64,000 nt of DNA from Rhodopirellula baltica SH 1 (lineage in GTDB: Bacteria > Planctomycetota > Planctomycetia > Pirellulales > Pirellulaceae). The position numbers and the translations under genes are program-made. Where the stretch lies: NCBI RefSeq assembly GCF_000196115.1, contig NC_005027.1:6382001-6446000 (forward strand). Reading direction: 5' to 3'. The notes under the pieces are model-generated. The model searched no databases. It was not told where the DNA came from and was given only the letters and a program-made list of their open reading frames with translations. Shown here piece after piece: positions 5,411 through 26,010 of the stretch (within the stretch, counting starts at the first letter, position 1; the number at the start of each line of letters is the position of its first letter).

Positions 5411-6538
5411 TCAGCTGTTGGCGACGGCTTCTCCGTCTTCGACTGCTTCTTCACTCTCGTCGGCGTCCACTTCAAGCGGCGCGACAAAGCCGCCGGCTGC
5501 CAAGACCTTTTGCTTGATCTCATCGGAGACGTCGGGGTTCTCGATCAAGAAGTTGCGAGCCTTCTCTTTGCCTTGTCCCAGATAAGTGTCGCCGTACTTG
5601 AACCAGGAACCGCTGCGGTTGACGACCTTGTTCTCGGTTCCCAGATCCAGCAAATCTCCTTCGAAACTGATGCCATTGGAGTGCATCATGTCAAATTCAG
5701 CGATGCGGAACGGAGGTGCGACCTTGTTCTTGACGATCTTGGCTTTGACGCGTTGACCGACTTGCTCTTCGCCGTCCTTCAGGCTGCCAATCCGACGAAC
5801 ATCGATTCGGCACGAGCAATAGAATTTGAGGGCACGACCGCCGGGTGTGGTTTCGGGACTGCCGAACATCACGCCGACCTTTTCGCGGATCTGGTTGATG
5901 AAGACGACGGCCGATTTGCTTTTGGCGATCGCACCGGTCAGCTTCCGCATCGACTGGCTCATCAAACGAGCTTGCAGGCCCACGTGGCTGTCGCCAATCT
6001 CGCCTTCGAGTTCCGCCTTGGGCACCAAGGCCGCGACGGAGTCGATGATGATGACGTCGACAGCGTTGGATTTGACTAGCATCTCGCAGATCTGCATCGC
6101 CTCTTCACCGCTGCTGGGTTGGCTGACCAGCAGGCTGTCCAGTTCAACGCCCAGCTTCTTGGCCCAACTGGGGTCAAAGGCATGCTCGGCATCGATGATT
6201 GCCGCGATCCCGCCAGACTTTTGAGCTTCGGCACCGATGTGCAGAGCCAACGTCGTCTTACCGGAAGATTCCGGTCCGAAGACTTCGATGATTCGGCCTC
6301 GCGGGATGCCCTTTCCACCCAGAGCCATGTCGAGGCTGAGGCTGCCTGTGGAGATACAATCGATGGTCAGCTTTTGGGATGCTCCCAGCGGCATGATCGC
6401 ACCGTCGCCAAACGATTTTTCGATCTGTTGAAGCGTCGTCTTCAGACCGGGTTCTTTTTCCAGAATGGTCTTCATCCCTGGATCCAGCTTGACGCCCTTG
6501 GATGCTGCGGGCGTTGCCATGCGTGGTTTCTTTACCAT
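5411..6538 (-). CDS. recA: Recombinase RecA
   Basis: A 375-aa RecA. It polymerises on single-stranded DNA, drives strand exchange and acts as the co-protease in SOS induction. The Walker A motif GPESSGKT is at residues 88-95; '[20 protein letters not shown]', '[17 protein letters not shown]' (Walker B) and the loop '[19 protein letters not shown]' are all intact. The C-terminal tail is acidic ([13 protein letters not shown]), as usual. The ATG at 6538 has AAAGGA about nine bases upstream. Monocistronic, with an intrinsic terminator and a palindromic putative operator 269-285 bases upstream of the start. Confidence 0.99.
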
Positions 6539-6939
6539 GTCCTGATTCCTTTATTCCCTGAACAAACTTTTCTTGTTTCCAATTCAAACCCAACCGATGT
6601 CCAAACCAACGGTGGTCAGACATGGCGATCCCTGCGAAGTCGCAAGGTCGATCCTATCGAGGAAGGTGCCCGAGACAATGAAAGCCCGACAGCTTTTCCA
6701 CCGAAGTGAGTTCGGCCAGTTGATGTGACGACCGGTCGACGGTTGGTTTACAGAGAAGACCGCGGTGAGCTGCCTCCTCTTCACACCCTTAGTATTCGTC
6801 AGGGGTGTGACACGTTTGGTCACGGGTGAGAGATGTCGTTGCCATCCAAGACAGACTCCCGGGAAGCCGGTGGCCGAGCCACGGATCAGATATGCGCCGC
6901 ACTGATCAGGAATGTTTCGTGAAAACGACCGCCGAATGG
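6539..6939. other. Long recA upstream region without a gene
   Basis: Four hundred bases between recA and the unknown gene upstream of it. I find no supportable coding sequence. It holds the palindrome at 6807-6823 and, near the recA start, an imperfect inverted pair GAACAAA...TTGTTTC at 6561-6580. The recA promoter must lie here; I could not assign -35/-10 boxes with confidence. Confidence 0.6.
6807..6823. promoter_or_regulatory. 17-bp palindrome, candidate damage-response operator (recA copy)
   Basis: GTGACACGTTTGGTCAC: perfect GTGAC/GTCAC arms with a 7-base centre. The identical 17-mer occurs at 25994-26010 beside the imuA/imuB locus. Shared presence near recA and a mutagenesis cassette suggests a common regulator such as LexA. 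This is inference; I did not recognise it as a published site. Confidence 0.6.
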
Positions 6940-21761: not shown

Positions 21762-23867
21762 TCAATCGAACCAACCATGAAGTTGCCAATCGGTCGGATG
21801 ATTGAGATCGCGAAAAATCCACCATCGTGCTCCATCGTCCAGTTCCACACGGAAGTAATCGCGGCGAACCATTGGGCCTTGCCACCATCGTGTTTCGATC
21901 CGTTCGGGGCCCCAATGTTGATGCACGTTCCACACTCTTCCGCGAAAACGAAATTTGGGGGGGAACTGATTTTCACCGGGTGGGGCTTGGCCATGTCCCA
22001 GTGGCGTGAGTCGCTGAGGTGATGAATGCAGTTGAAGCGGCCGGCGTCCGGCATCATGGGGCGTTGGCACTCCGTTGCGAGTTCCACCGCCATGACGACC
22101 ATGAGATTCGTCACGCGATTCCGCGGCCGAGGATGCTTTGGATTTGGGGCGTCGCCGCGGCCGGGTGGTGGCAAGTTTGCGACCACTTGATTGGGTCAGC
22201 GGGAAATCCGTGACAGTGTCTTCGGGCAACGGATCGCGATTGATGCGGACGCCTCGCACGGATTCTTCTCCCAAGCGACCGCTCAACGAATCGATCAATC
22301 GAGCGATGTCGGTTTGACGCGTCCAATCGGTTTGCGTGTCGCTTTCAAAGCCGGGGCCGAAGATCGACGGTTGAGTGCTGGCGAGGATCGCGTCTTGTAG
22401 TACGTCCAATCGAAGATGCGAAACCTTGGACTGACAAGCATGCGATTCAAATGCGCCAATCATCAAGTTGCTGAGGTGATTCAGGTCCAACGTTGGCGAG
22501 AACAGTCCGGATTCGAGCGTCACGGATGGCGACTCGGTGAAGTCGATTTGGCATCGCAAACGCAGCACGCCTCTTCCTAGTGGACGCAAGGATGCGGTGG
22601 CGGATTCGATCAAACGAATGATCCGGTCGCGAATCAAGTCAACCGCGTCGGTTGGATATTCCAGTTCCAAGGACGCGGTGTGTTCGGTGGGAATGTCGAT
22701 CGCGAGAATGGGTTCGTCGACTTCTCCCAGTGCTTGAGCGATACGGTTGCACAAACCGTGACCGATGCGAGTGGCCAATCCGCTGCGAGGCAATTGCAAG
22801 AGCGAGCCGATGGTTTCGATTCCCAATCGTTGCAAGGTTTCCACATCCGTTGGATTTAAACGCAATGCGGATGGCGGCAACGTTTGCAGTGCATCGCGGG
22901 TGCGATTGGCGGGGGCCAAGAAGAAGTCGAAGTGGTTCTTGGCTGGATCTTTGGTTCGCGTTTGAGAGGGCGCATGGGTGGCGAGTGCCCAAGCTGCCCC
23001 GAGAGTGCTGGCGATTGCCAGGCGGGCGTTCAGGTGACGGCGTTTCAGAATAGTGGCCGCGGCAGCGAGCAAGCCTGGTTCGTCATCGAACAAATGTGTG
23101 ACGCCGTCGATCTCCGCGACAAGTGCTTCGGGATCATGTCGAAAGCGTCCGGCCCATTTGAATCGGTCGAGTGTTTCCAATGCGATCTGCGGACACAGAT
23201 GGCTTTGCAGTTCGGTCGCCAACGAATGCAACGCTCGTCGATCGGCGACACGATCATGTTCGTCAATGATCGCGGTGGGGATTGGCGGGACGCTTTGATT
23301 CGCGACGTTTCGGCCGGAGTTGTGCTGGTCGGCCAGCGTGGTAGTGATGTCGACGGCTTGCGCGATCGGCATGCCCAATCGCACGCCCATGGCCGCGGCA
23401 CGTTGACAACTCGCCGCCACGATTCTTCCGCGACGCGGGTCGGCATGCCAAAGGATCAGCGGCGCGGTGGCGGCTTGGGGGGCGGACGGGTGAGTGGGAA
23501 GTTCAGGTTCGGCCCTCCCCTCGCTTCGCTCGACCCTCCCAGAGGGAGGGTGAAGTGCGGAGGAAGAGATGCTTCGCTCTGCTTTCCCAGGAGGAGGGTG
23601 AAGTGTGGAGGGGGAGACGCTTTGCTCGGCCTTCCCGGAGGACGTGTGAATAGCGGAGGTGGAGATGCTTCGCTCGGCTCTTTTGGAGAGAGGGTGAAGT
23701 GGCGAAGTTTTGCTTGTGCTATCCCGCGGCTCGGCGGTTGTTTTGTCGTTGGTCGCTGGGTCGCTGATCCCTGGGTCGCTGTGATTCGGGTTGGCGCTGA
23801 GGAGGCTCTCGGCGCGTCGACGTTGGACGGGCCAGTTGGGCAGCCAAATGCACAGCAGCCTTTTCAT
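21762..23867 (-). CDS. imuB: DNA polymerase Y-family protein ImuB
   Basis: About 701 aa from ATG 23867 (MKRLLCIWLPNWPVQRRR, the canonical ImuB N-terminus). ImuB is the inactive Y-family polymerase that, with ImuA and DnaE2, carries out damage-induced mutagenesis. Recognisable parts are 'LILWHADPRRGRIVAASC', 'LQRLGIETIGSLLQLPRSGLATRIG' (HhH region) and 'GPERIETRWWQGPMVRRDYFRVE'. A weak clamp-type motif (TQPSIFGP) lies before the C-terminal third. About residues 20-130 are an insertion of Ser/His/Glu-rich repeats between the first strand and the LWHADPRRG block. It overlaps imuA by 149 bases. No dnaE2 is in the window. Confidence 0.9.
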   Translation of the reverse strand: MKRLLCIWLPNWPVQRRRAESLLSANPNHSDPGISDPATNDKTTAEPRDSTSKTSPLHPLSKRAERSISTSAIHTSSGKAEQSVSPSTLHPPPGKAERSISSSALHPPSGRVERSEGRAEPELPTHPSAPQAATAPLILWHADPRRGRIVAASCQRAAAMGVRLGMPIAQAVDITTTLADQHNSGRNVANQSVPPIPTAIIDEHDRVADRRALHSLATELQSHLCPQIALETLDRFKWAGRFRHDPEALVAEIDGVTHLFDDEPGLLAAAATILKRRHLNARLAIASTLGAAWALATHAPSQTRTKDPAKNHFDFFLAPANRTRDALQTLPPSALRLNPTDVETLQRLGIETIGSLLQLPRSGLATRIGHGLCNRIAQALGEVDEPILAIDIPTEHTASLELEYPTDAVDLIRDRIIRLIESATASLRPLGRGVLRLRCQIDFTESPSVTLESGLFSPTLDLNHLSNLMIGAFESHACQSKVSHLRLDVLQDAILASTQPSIFGPGFESDTQTDWTRQTDIARLIDSLSGRLGEESVRGVRINRDPLPEDTVTDFPLTQSSGRKLATTRPRRRPKSKASSAAESRDESHGRHGGGTRNGVPTPHDAGRRPLQLHSSPQRLTPLGHGQAPPGENQFPPKFRFRGRVWNVHQHWGPERIETRWWQGPMVRRDYFRVELDDGARWWIFRDLNHPTDWQLHGWFD
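23508..23703. repeat. Repeat DNA inside imuB
   Basis: The 49-bp segment 23508-23556 is identical to 24758-24806 in imuA. It contains CCCTCCC-AGA-GGGAGGG and the motif CGCTTCGCTCG. Decayed copies of the unit follow to about 23703. In protein the perfect unit reads HPPSGRVERSEGRAEP, with diverged units such as HTSSGKAEQSVSPST before it. Confidence 0.85.
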
Positions 23868-25104
23868 GAGTGTTTGCCGTGGATGTGTCAGCGGTTGCGG
23901 TGTCACCAACCGGGTTCGAGTGGGAAACAGAGTTCGAATGAGCAGCGAGGAAGGGCCGCGAATCCAAATCATGCAGCATCGCGTCGGGGGTGATCGCCAG
24001 GAAAGCTTGGCGGGCCGCGTTGGTTTTGGCTCGGGGCATCGTCACATGAGCGACCCGGAGATCGCGATAGCGACGAAGGTTGGTGGGTGGCAAGGCGGAA
24101 CGGGACCGAGGAAGCGGAACGATTTGTTCGGGCTGAGCAGGCACCGACCGGACGTGCCAGCGAACCGAAGCAAACGAGGGCCGGCGCCCCGCCGACGCGG
24201 TTCGCACAAGCAGACCTGGAGTTTGGCCGGTTTCAGCGGCGAGTTGCAACCGTCGTGCGTCGCGATCGTTCAGATTCCAAGGCAACATCGACCACACCGC
24301 GGCGACGGAACCGCACCGGAGGGCTTGGTCGAGCGTCCACACCGCGTCGCGGCGGTTGGTGACTCGACACCAAACGATTCGTTCGGCAGGGATGCCGCAA
24401 GCGATCGCGGCGGGAGCATAGAAATGGCCACCGGGGTCGACGACGATGACGGGACCGTCGTGGTGAGCATGCGCCGGTGGATGAGGTTGGTTGGCCGTTC
24501 CCAAAATCTGGGCCGCGGCGAGCAAGGAAAGTGTGCCCGCGCCGCCGCCTTCGGTTTCCGCGATCCATTCGCTGATCGTGCCGCGTCTCATTCCGCCGCC
24601 GGGTAACCAAGAATCCAACGCCGAAGACCCAGTCGAAAAACGCGGGGTGGAATCGGTCGCGACGAGCGGGTCTGAGATCGCTTCGGTTTGGCGACGCAGT
24701 TTTTGCAGCAACGCCTCGCGAGTGGTGGGGGCGTGTTCGGCTTTACCCTCGTTTGGCTCGGCCCTCCCCTCGCTTCGCTCGACCCTCCCAGAGGGAGGGT
24801 GAAGTGTGGAGGGAGAGACGCTTTGCTCGGCTTTCCCAGAGGATGTGTGAAGTGCGGAGAGGGAGACGCTTTGCTTGGCCCGTCCAGAAGGAACGAGAGC
24901 TTGGTTGTTGCTTTGCTTGGCTGGTTTGGAGGGGAGCGGGGGGGCTGCGTGACGACGCTTGGTGATTGAGGTTACAGTGGAAGGAGCCACTGATTCCTCC
25001 CAGAAAGCAAAGGTTTGCTGTTCGGGAGCCTGTTCCAACACGCCGGTGGACGCGGTCAATCGGCGTGGAACGGAGATACTTTTGGTGGAAATGCTGTTTG
25101 GCAT
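23719..25104 (-). CDS. imuA: ImuA-like RecA-fold protein of the mutasome
   Basis: A 461-aa protein immediately upstream of and overlapping imuB. The central part resembles ImuA: 'FSTGSSALDSWLPGGGMRRGTISEWIAE', then 'GGGAGTLSLLAAAQI' at the P-loop position (lysine missing, so nucleotide binding is doubtful) and 'VIVVDPGGHFYAPAAIACGI'. 'RIVWCRVTNRRDAVWTLDQALRCGSVAAVWSML' follows. Residues of roughly 65-130 are the same repeat-derived sequence seen in ImuB. The Arg/Gln/Pro-rich tail is encoded in the region shared with imuB. ATG at 25104 with a candidate operator 12-28 bases upstream. Confidence 0.82.
   Translation of the reverse strand: MPNSISTKSISVPRRLTASTGVLEQAPEQQTFAFWEESVAPSTVTSITKRRHAAPPLPSKPAKQSNNQALVPSGRAKQSVSLSALHTSSGKAEQSVSPSTLHPPSGRVERSEGRAEPNEGKAEHAPTTREALLQKLRRQTEAISDPLVATDSTPRFSTGSSALDSWLPGGGMRRGTISEWIAETEGGGAGTLSLLAAAQILGTANQPHPPAHAHHDGPVIVVDPGGHFYAPAAIACGIPAERIVWCRVTNRRDAVWTLDQALRCGSVAAVWSMLPWNLNDRDARRLQLAAETGQTPGLLVRTASAGRRPSFASVRWHVRSVPAQPEQIVPLPRSRSALPPTNLRRYRDLRVAHVTMPRAKTNAARQAFLAITPDAMLHDLDSRPFLAAHSNSVSHSNPVGDTATADTSTANTHEKAAVHLAAQLARPTSTRREPPQRQPESQRPRDQRPSDQRQNNRRAAG
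24758..24900. repeat. Repeat DNA inside imuA
   Basis: The 49-bp identical block 24758-24806 (see imuB) followed by two diverged units to about 24900. It is read in the same frame as in imuB, giving HPPSGRVERSEGRAEP and diverged versions. Confidence 0.85.
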
Positions 25105-25115
25105 CGTCTTGCTGC

Positions 25116-25132
25116 CTGCCTCGTTTGGTCAG
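25116..25132. promoter_or_regulatory. Degenerate copy of the candidate operator in front of imuA
   Basis: CTGCCTCGTTTGGTCAG matches GTGACACGTTTGGTCAC at 13 of 17 positions, including the run CGTTTGGTCA. It ends 12 bases before the imuA ATG, a position where a repressor would block transcription. Weak on its own; meaningful next to the two perfect copies. Confidence 0.4.
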
Positions 25133-25202: not shown

Positions 25203-25562
25203 ATGCTCCAGAAAATCCGCTGGTTTTTGTCGTTGGCGGCCGTCTTGGTCGTCGTCATCGTGGCGTTTCAAAACCAAGACGCGGTGCCGCTAACCATTCT
25301 GTTTTTCAGTGGCGAATACCCACTGACGTTGCTGCTGCTGGGCAGTTCCGGCGTCAGCTTTGTACTCGGGTGTTTGATGACCGCGTGGAGAATCCGCAGT
25401 CGCCACAAGGCTCAAATCGCCCGGGAATCCGAGGCCAAAAAGGGATCCGAAGCCAAAAAAGCGGAAGCTACTGCGAAAGAGACGTCTTCCACGAAGAAGA
25501 AAAGTGTCGCGGGCAACGAGTCAGCCGAAGCTTCCATCGGCTTGGATCAGGAAGCGACCTGA
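25203..25562 (+). CDS. LapA-domain (DUF1049-like) small membrane protein
   Basis: A 119-aa protein with two N-terminal membrane helices (WFLSLAAVLVVVIVAFQNQDAVPLTILFF and LTLLLLGSSGVSFVLGCLMTAW). 'FQNQDAVPLTILFFSGEYPLTLLLL' is the LapA/YciS signature. The tail is lysine/glutamate-rich (EAKKGSEAKKAEATAKE), probably coiled and cytoplasmic. YciS-type proteins act in LPS assembly control. It is divergent from imuA and its last 16 bases overlap the end of the small QLSLF gene on the other strand. Confidence 0.85.
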   Translation: MLQKIRWFLSLAAVLVVVIVAFQNQDAVPLTILFFSGEYPLTLLLLGSSGVSFVLGCLMTAWRIRSRHKAQIARESEAKKGSEAKKAEATAKETSSTKKKSVAGNESAEASIGLDQEAT

Positions 25563-25912
25563 ACGTTGTCGTCGGCAGCGTCAAAGTCGCTGGCCTTCTG
25601 CTGCGACGCGGCACGGCGACGGGCCACCAAATCGTGGCGACGCAAAACGGCTTGAGCAAGATCGCCGATTCGCTGGATGGGGCGTTCGGTCGACGCCTGC
25701 TGAGCTTTGAGCTGCTCCCGGCCTTCGCGGATCAATTCGGCGAGAGCCAACAAAGTGTTGTCCGACCCATTGGACTTCGATGCCGCGATGATTGGCATCA
25801 CGGATGATTGAGTTGCCGGTGCGGTGTGAGTTGCCGGTGCCGCGGTTGCGGAGACCGATGCGATCACGGGGGAAACCGGTGCGATGGCGTCGAAGAGAGA
25901 AAGCTGAGTCAT
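25547..25912 (-). CDS. Small protein with N-terminal beta-clamp-binding motif (QLSLF), next to imuA/imuB
   Basis: A 121-aa product starting MTQLSLFDA. Residues 3-7 are QLSLF, the consensus pentapeptide that docks proteins onto the DNA polymerase sliding clamp. After an Ala/Thr/Pro-rich linker comes a helical C-terminal half ('LLALAELIREGREQLKAQQ' and 'IGDLAQAVLRRHDLVARRRAA'). I do not recognise a family. The ATG at 25912 is preferred; a GTG at 25963 would overlap a palindrome. Two GTGAC/GTCAC palindromes lie 36-98 bases upstream. It converges with the lapA-like gene, which separates it from imuA. A role as an accessory mutasome subunit is inference. Confidence 0.65.
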   Translation of the reverse strand: MTQLSLFDAIAPVSPVIASVSATAAPATHTAPATQSSVMPIIAASKSNGSDNTLLALAELIREGREQLKAQQASTERPIQRIGDLAQAVLRRHDLVARRRAASQQKASDFDAADDNVQVAS

Positions 25913-25947: not shown

Positions 25948-25963
25948 GTGACGTGTGGGTCAC
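25948..25963. promoter_or_regulatory. Variant palindrome GTGAC-N6-GTCAC
   Basis: GTGACGTGTGGGTCAC, with the same 5-base arms as the 17-bp palindrome 30 bases away but a 6-base centre. It is probably a second, weaker site for the same regulator. Confidence 0.45.
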
Positions 25964-25993
25964 GTCTCACTGAAAAGATTGTTCGCAAGGTCC

Positions 25994-26010
25994 GTGACAC
26001 GTTTGGTCAC
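25994..26010. promoter_or_regulatory. 17-bp palindrome, candidate damage-response operator (imu-locus copy)
   Basis: GTGACACGTTTGGTCAC, identical over 17 bases to the recA-upstream site at 6807-6823. It lies 82 bases before the ATG of the QLSLF gene. It could also serve the divergent unknown membrane gene, but that start is 256 bases away. Confidence 0.6.

What the first reader, a model, noticed from the sequence alone, without database searches (positions are those of the whole stretch)
6807..6823. Identical 17-bp palindrome upstream of recA and at the imu mutagenesis locus: candidate planctomycete SOS operator
GTGACACGTTTGGTCAC is present at 6807-6823 (recA side) and 25994-26010 (imu side), both with perfect GTGAC/GTCAC arms. 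A chance exact 17-bp match between exactly these two loci is unlikely. A GTGAC-N6-GTCAC relative lies at 25948-25963 and a 13/17 match sits 12 bases before the imuA ATG. RecA and ImuA/ImuB are classic members of the damage regulon in bacteria (established knowledge). That this site binds LexA, or another regulator, is inference. I do not recognise it as any published LexA box.
Basis: partly seen in the sequence, partly recalled or inferred. Interest (0 to 1): 0.88.

Follow-up and report, generated by a model that had tools for sequence, protein, structure and literature searches.

The report
WYL-type damage promoter box in planctomycetes
The repeated 17-letter DNA site is real and looks like the switch of a DNA-damage gene set (recA and partners) that is probably turned on by a single-strand-DNA-sensing activator protein instead of the classical LexA repressor.

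Summary
The two identical 17-bp sites are real. Read towards their genes they are GTGACCAAACGTGTCAC. The genome holds nine copies with at most one mismatch (reversed-pattern control 0), between genes; eight point at a gene start in one orientation: recA, priA, a ResIII-type helicase, csrA, a stand-alone WYL protein, two paralogous small proteins and a 121-aa protein near imuA. In 69 sites a sigma70-like -10 follows at fixed distance, and GAC-N7-GTC sits where a -35 should be. That is the layout published for DriD, the ssDNA-activated WYL activator of Caulobacter. One WYL regulator (closest solved relatives DriD, then PafBC) co-occurs with the box: 34 of 37 class genomes with its orthologue have a strict match, against 36 of 260 without. 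Upstream of recA the box is in 17 of 17 tested Pirellulaceae with the orthologue and 1 of 4 without. LexA is an unlikely binder: no box at R. baltica lexA; relatives with canonical LexA mostly have TGTACA-type boxes there; Rhodopirellula LexA lost its catalytic lysine (12 of 12). Binding, trigger and induction are inferred; nothing was tested in cells.

The parts
6807..6823 (-). WYL/DriD-type activator box of recA, GTGACCAAACGTGTCAC read towards recA
   Evidence: exact copy; matrix score 42.6, best in window (a training site)
6791..6796 (-). predicted -10 element AATACT of the recA promoter (A at -11, T at -7)
   Evidence: fixed position in the 69-site logo; sequence; start of transcription near 6784 is inferred
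5411..6538 (-). recA, start 268 bp downstream of the box
   Evidence: Pfam RecA 1.3e-128; distance
25994..26010 (-). second exact box, upstream of the 121-aa gene
   Evidence: matrix score 42.3 (a training site)
25978..25983 (-). predicted -10 element AACAAT
   Evidence: register; sequence
25547..25912 (-). 121-aa protein with N-terminal MTQLSLFD (resembles a beta-clamp-binding motif, recalled); box 81 bp upstream
   Evidence: similar N-terminus and box in L080, L105, L117, L131; no NCBIfam family
25948..25963 (.). GTGAC-N6-GTCAC palindrome in the predicted 5' leader of the 121-aa gene; not counted as a copy of the box
   Evidence: spacer of 6, not 7
25116..25132 (-). 13/17 match 12 bases before the imuA-like gene; read as chance or decayed
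   Evidence: matrix score 9.4
23719..25104 (-). imuA-like gene (neighbour, not a shown target)
   Evidence: NCBIfam ImuA 5e-26, 91.7 bits, below the curated 150
21762..23972 (-). imuB-like gene (weak)
   Evidence: weak DNA polymerase IV hits, best E 2.8e-4, far below cut-offs; no PDB match

Best explanation
The site is the upstream part of a class of DNA-damage promoters. Two half-sites, GAC and GTC 7 bp apart, sit over the place of the -35 element, and a sigma70-like -10 lies at a fixed distance. Promoters of this kind lack a good -35 and need an activator. The most likely activator is the HTH-WYL-WCX protein encoded at genome position 907,632-908,654 (outside the window). By analogy with DriD and PafBC, single-stranded DNA made at broken or stalled DNA binds the WYL domain, the dimer holds RNA polymerase on the promoter, and recA, priA, helicases, csrA, small proteins and, in relatives, addAB-type and recQ repair genes and mobile defence genes are switched on. 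In Rhodopirellula this may have taken over recA from LexA. Shown by computation: motif, -10 register, orientation, gene set, co-occurrence, loss of LexA protease residues. Inferred: binding by the WYL protein, ssDNA trigger, induction by damage, the take-over from LexA.
For: Nine own copies at up to 1 mismatch, control 0. The -10 was not part of the selection of the 69 sites, yet A29 70%, A31 65%, T33 71%. Of 69 sites 49 have a gene start only downstream, 11 on both sides, 0 only on the divergent side. DriD consensus ATACGAC-N7-GTCGTAT over the -35 at constant distance from the -10 (PMC12340889); its CCNA_03891 promoter has GAC at 3-5, GTC at 13-15, A29 and T33 as here. WYL profile against PDB: DriD about 1e-17, PafBC about 1e-6 to 1e-5. 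Strict motif in 34 of 37 genomes with the orthologue and 36 of 260 without (two or more copies: 27 of 37, 5 of 260; reversed control 20 of 297 genomes). recA box in 17 of 17 against 1 of 4 Pirellulaceae. In G245, another family, a site lies about 270 bp upstream of the WYL gene. In G074 and G127 the box precedes an addB-addA-sbcD-sbcC-like operon beside the WYL gene.
Against: No binding or expression data. G017 has the recA box but no WYL hit (91% complete). G223, G296 and G026 have the orthologue but no strict motif; G026, G029, G245 lack the box at recA. 36 of 260 genomes without the orthologue have a strict match, above the reversed control. The WYL gene in Pirellulaceae has no box of its own (top score 14.1 in 34 loci). 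The HTH part is not covered by the DriD match. addB has no box in 13 of 13 Rhodopirellula. One of nine own sites has no co-directional gene; an own 2-mismatch match inside a gene scores 23.8. Conservation of the arms in the logo and in the recA set follows in part from how the sites were picked. Genomes of one family are not independent.
Confidence: 0.8

Rival explanations
1. LexA operator of an SOS regulon: a symmetric repressor sits on the palindrome over the promoter and is removed by RecA-stimulated self-cleavage.
For: Palindromic arms; recA and repair genes in the set; LexA present in the genome. G015 lexA has a 4-mismatch match upstream, facing away.
Against: At least 5 mismatches upstream of lexA in 12 of 12 Rhodopirellula loci; TGTACA or TGTATACA upstream in 13 of 17 loci outside the genus; Rhodopirellula LexA lacks the catalytic Lys in 12 of 12; G022 has 7 matches and no LexA above cut-off; asymmetric centre and fixed orientation.
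Confidence: 0.06
2. An XRE-family repressor cleaved by an IrrE-like protease (DdrO/IrrE type) binds the site.
For: An XRE-IrrE pair has the box upstream in several genomes.
Against: The close XRE homologue (over 90% identity) is in 5 of 40 relatives, the motif in 21 of 40: it looks like a mobile target.
Confidence: 0.03
3. A different, unrecognised regulator or an alternative sigma factor reads the whole element.
For: Fixed orientation and -10 spacing; G017 has a box without a detected WYL protein.
Against: Co-occurrence with the WYL orthologue, including its absence together with the recA box in G078, G220 and G019; spacing as in DriD promoters.
Confidence: 0.1
4. Conserved 5'-leader RNA hairpin.
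For: 5-bp arms with a conserved 7-nt centre.
Against: The element precedes a conserved -10, so it is not transcribed from that promoter; positions 2 and 16 show no covariation in 17 recA sites (4 of 17 complementary, shuffles 4.0).
Confidence: 0.01

Closest known systems
DriD of Caulobacter crescentus (WYL, ssDNA-activated, SOS-independent activator)
   Same: HTH-WYL-WCX type protein; GAC-N7-GTC half-sites; site over the -35 at constant distance from the -10; poor -35; damage genes (PMC12340889, passages and section 11)
   Different: Outer arms differ (GTGAC/GTCAC or variable here, ATACGAC/GTCGTAT there); here recA is a steady target and the gene set differs; the HTH is not covered by the sequence match
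PafBC and the RecA-NDp promoter of mycobacteria
   Same: WYL activator driving a RecA/LexA-independent damage response including recA, by sigma adaptation (PMC11804915, PMC8223512, passages)
   Different: Heterodimer with a non-palindromic motif (PMC6789036, passages); weaker similarity (about 1e-6 to 1e-5 against 1e-17 for DriD)
LexA / SOS box
   Same: Short palindrome before recA and repair genes
   Different: Not found at R. baltica lexA, other sequence than the TGTACA-type box seen at lexA in most related lineages, oriented and asymmetric
DdrO/IrrE radiation response
   Same: An XRE-IrrE pair appears in the regulon
   Different: The pair is patchy and seems to be a target

Membership tests
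DriD-type WYL damage promoter | GAC-N7-GTC half-sites | tested here: met
   69-site logo; GACC at 3-6 and TGTC at 12-15 in 17 of 17 recA sites. Both sets were picked by likeness to the motif, so this is partly built in
DriD-type WYL damage promoter | site over -35, constant distance to -10 | tested here: met
   A29/T33 favoured without having been selected for; same register as CCNA_03891, and didA with weaker half-sites; bapE ambiguous
DriD-type WYL damage promoter | cognate WYL-WCX regulator in the same genome | tested here: met
   WYL 2.8e-15 and WCX 1.7e-14; DriD best PDB match
DriD-type WYL damage promoter | HTH orthologous to DriD HTH | tested here: inconclusive
   match covers WYL-WCX only; Pfam names no HTH in the protein, the HTH is read from the alignment
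DriD-type WYL damage promoter | protein binds the box, ssDNA activates, damage induces | not testable with these tools
   needs bench work
PafBC | paired homologous WYL genes (pafB, pafC) or their fusion | tested here: not met
   no second WYL gene beside it; the neighbour is weakly HicB-like, below cut-off
LexA SOS regulon | box upstream of lexA | tested here: not met
   12 of 12 Rhodopirellula lexA loci at least 5 mismatches away; best of 30 loci 4, facing away from lexA
LexA SOS regulon | self-cleaving LexA with Ser-Lys dyad in the genus | tested here: not met
   Lys position is Arg in 12 of 12 Rhodopirellula read (of 13 genomes), Lys in 15 of 15 readable others; that this Lys is catalytic is recalled
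LexA SOS regulon | LexA binds the site | not testable with these tools
   gel shift needed
DdrO/IrrE | regulator present wherever the box is | tested here: not met

The most novel reading that the evidence does not exclude
Rhodopirellula has replaced the LexA SOS response: LexA has decayed into a non-cleaving DNA binder, and an ssDNA-sensing WYL activator of DriD type is now the master switch of recA and of a repair-plus-defence regulon, with a stand-alone WYL protein inside the regulon as a possible brake. Mobile modules (CRISPR-Cas genes, methyltransferases, integrase, XRE-IrrE) plug into it by carrying its promoter box.
Probability: 0.45. Interest if true: 0.85.

Novelty: new variant of a known kind. 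Interest (0 to 1): 0.77.

Why it matters
My paper searches found little on how planctomycetes sense DNA damage; the one statement on their LexA box that I saw is that it is not the E. coli one (PMC3108266, passage). A WYL activator holding recA, in a genus whose LexA has lost protease residues, would be a natural swap of the SOS master switch, in a lineage far from Caulobacter and mycobacteria. The box also predicts which mobile and defence genes answer to DNA damage, and gives WYL regulators of this phylum a testable promoter.

Tried and rejected
LexA as binder: disfavoured. A clean exchange of LexA boxes for the new box at recA could not be shown: GTAC/GTATAC-type matches upstream of recA occur in 8 of 20 genomes with the WYL orthologue and 4 of 10 without; the odds of the novel case were lowered from 0.5 to 0.45 for this. 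XRE-IrrE as regulator: patchy, so read as a target. WYL domain as such: present in 38 of 40 relatives, uninformative until the orthologue was separated; the limit E 1e-60 was set after seeing the gap between 5.6e-63 and 1.2e-38. The YafY-like WYL gene with a 2-mismatch match (L024) scored 6.5: dropped. RNA hairpin: no covariation. Strict matches read in G052, G087, G072, G251 and one of G029 lie inside predicted genes: taken as chance. 3-mismatch matches of the own genome that were read lie mostly inside genes. Of 110 relatives' matches, 60 were fetched for the logo. The 20 proteins annotated are a choice among downstream genes; 6 of 20 had no Pfam family. That 7,145,576 bp is R. baltica SH1, the QLSLF clamp reading and the catalytic role of the LexA Lys are recalled.

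Full report
OBSERVATION. The genome that holds the window is one contig of 7,145,576 bp, the size I recall for Rhodopirellula baltica SH1; no call names it. Genome-wide there are 4 exact and 5 one-mismatch copies; the reversed pattern gives 0 at that limit. At up to 3 mismatches the count is 28 per strand against 14 and 11 for the control, so the weaker matches are largely noise. The bare palindrome GTGAC-N6/7-GTCAC has 37 sites against 10 for its control.

ANATOMY. The centre is not symmetric, and read towards the downstream gene the nine copies are RTGACCNNAYGTGTCAC. They score 28.5-42.8 against a matrix of which they are part, and lie between genes (with laxer ORF settings one, L021, falls in a short ORF on the other strand). 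The largest score elsewhere in the 30 own loci is 10.4; two own 2-mismatch matches score 24.5 (between genes, upstream of an ECF sigma gene) and 23.8 (inside a gene). Eight of nine have a co-directional gene start 17-392 bp downstream: recA 268, the 121-aa MTQLSLF protein 81, a ResIII-type helicase 55, priA 17 or 62, csrA 392, a stand-alone WYL protein 67, and two paralogous 'MAKFYVQ' proteins 65 and 84. The ninth (6192009) has none. The logo uses these nine and 60 of the 110 matches found in relatives. Its arms are nearly invariant partly because sites were picked at up to 1 mismatch. The part after the 17-mer was not selected: 10 bp on lies a -10-like hexamer with A at position 29 (70%), A at 31 (65%) and T at 33 (71%). 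If A29 and T33 are -11 and -7, the element spans -39 to -23 and takes the place of the -35. Of 69 sites, 3 fall in predicted ORFs, 49 have a gene start within 450 bp only downstream, 11 on both sides, 0 only on the divergent side and 6 none. Such orientation and spacing are marks of an activator-dependent promoter.

CONSERVATION. Copies with up to one mismatch occur in 21 of 40 genomes (own included), 13 of 13 in the genus, with one control match in all 40. Downstream genes in relatives include recA, csrA, priA, recQ, Cas3, Cas7 of the GSU0053 family, C5 and N6 methyltransferases, a phage integrase, an ECF sigma factor and an XRE-IrrE pair; 6 of the 20 proteins scanned had no family. In G074 a box precedes a PD-(D/E)XK nuclease, a UvrD-like helicase, a metallophosphatase and an SbcC/YhaN-like ATPase, that is an addB-addA-sbcD-sbcC-like operon; G127 has the same order by ORF list. 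A site above 27 stands upstream of addB in 5 of 8 tested genomes outside Rhodopirellula that have it (G149, G161, G176, G263, G312), weaker or none in G299 (14.0), G018 (8.5) and G194 (0.8); other-strand controls in this scan reach 14.8. Rhodopirellula has none, 13 of 13 (3.9 or less). G062 had no addB match.

LEXA. R. baltica has LexA. Upstream of lexA the 12 Rhodopirellula loci read (of 13 genomes) are at least 5 mismatches from the box; the best of 30 loci has 4 (G015, facing away from lexA). Outside the genus LexA keeps Ser and Lys in 15 of 15 readable sequences (3 more were not extracted), and TGTACA or TGTATACA stands upstream in 13 of 17 loci; in Rhodopirellula the Lys position is Arg in 12 of 12, the Ser is lost in 2 of 12, and 0 of 12 have that box. 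At recA the picture is mixed: L139, L138 and L141 show GTAC- or GTATAC-type sequences, but such matches occur in 8 of 20 genomes with the WYL orthologue and 4 of 10 without, so a clean exchange of boxes is not shown. G022 has seven matches (one inside a gene, L091) and no LexA match above cut-off (96% complete).

THE WYL REGULATOR. DriD of Caulobacter binds ATACGAC-N7-GTCGTAT around the -35, at constant distance from the -10, and is activated by ssDNA (PMC12340889, passages and section 11). The CCNA_03891 promoter printed there, numbered as here, has GAC at 3-5, GTC at 13-15, A29 and T33; didA keeps the register with weaker half-sites; bapE is ambiguous. R. baltica has a WYL-WCX regulator conserved through the family (genome 907,632-908,654). 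Its closest solved relatives are DriD (profile E 1e-17 to 3e-17; 8TP8 is named DriD in PMC11804915) and then PafBC (1e-6 to 1e-5), over WYL-WCX only. In 297 genomes of the class its orthologue (E at most 1e-60) is in 37, among them 34 of 36 Pirellulaceae. The strict motif TGACCNNACGTGTCA is in 34 of those 37 and in 36 of the other 260; two or more copies in 27 of 37 and 5 of 260; the reversed motif is in 20 of 297 (Fisher 1e-21 and 4e-25, without correction for kinship). The two Pirellulaceae of that set without it, G078 and G220, have no motif. Upstream of recA, 17 of 17 tested Pirellulaceae with the orthologue score 8.2-35.4 while their other strand never exceeds -0.3; without it G078, G220 and G019 score below -4, and G017 is the exception (33.5). 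Outside the family, G245 and G029 have orthologue and motif, but not at recA; G026 has the orthologue and no motif. In G245 one site (27.1) lies about 270 bp upstream of the WYL gene, one (17.5) just beyond it and one (19.0) 11 kb away. In 8 of 12 genomes of genera g29 and g30 a strict motif lies about 11 kb from the WYL gene (coordinates); I read two of these. Within Pirellulaceae the WYL gene has no box of its own in the 34 loci scanned.

MECHANISM. Most likely an ssDNA-bound WYL dimer grips GAC and GTC around the empty -35 and anchors polymerase, as DriD does. Binding, trigger and induction are inferred. In an R. baltica stress microarray paper a word search found no lexA, SOS response or DNA repair, and its one 'reca' match was the word recalculated (PMC2754498).

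LITERATURE. Searches listed no paper on a planctomycete LexA box or WYL damage regulon; the lists were capped, and the library lacks most subscription journals. PMC3108266 (passages) says planctomycete LexA does not recognise the E. coli motif. PMC6789036, PMC8223512, PMC11804915, PMC9122601 and PMC4211646 were seen as passages only.

Noticed in passing
genome 632,090-632,248 (L247:3034-3417): A 127-aa stand-alone WYL-domain protein is itself preceded by the box; WYL hits beside matches also in G003, G006, G008, G011. A possible feedback brake.
   Followed up: partly
L250:3586-3960 and L253:3883-4293: Two paralogous small 'MAKFYVQ' proteins without Pfam or NCBIfam family, both with the box; an unknown part of the regulon.
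   Followed up: partly
L255, L256, L318: XRE protein of an XRE-IrrE pair is 96-100% identical in five genomes of two genera, with the box upstream in those read: probably a mobile module using the host promoter type.
   Followed up: partly
L116, L127, L133: CRISPR genes (Cas3, Cas7 GSU0053) directly downstream of the box in G004, G005, G007.
   Followed up: partly
window 25948-25963: GTGAC-N6-GTCAC palindrome in the predicted leader of the 121-aa gene; a similar inverted repeat is seen in relatives L105 and L117.
   Followed up: no
L085:1241-1459: A 72-aa LexA-DNA-binding-domain-like ORF (E 1.6e-4, below cut-off) lies downstream of a box in G020.
   Followed up: no
genome 6,344,117-6,347,817: Seven copies of GTGCCACCTTCGGTCAC, most at 528-bp steps, outside the window; looks like a repeat in a gene.
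   Followed up: no
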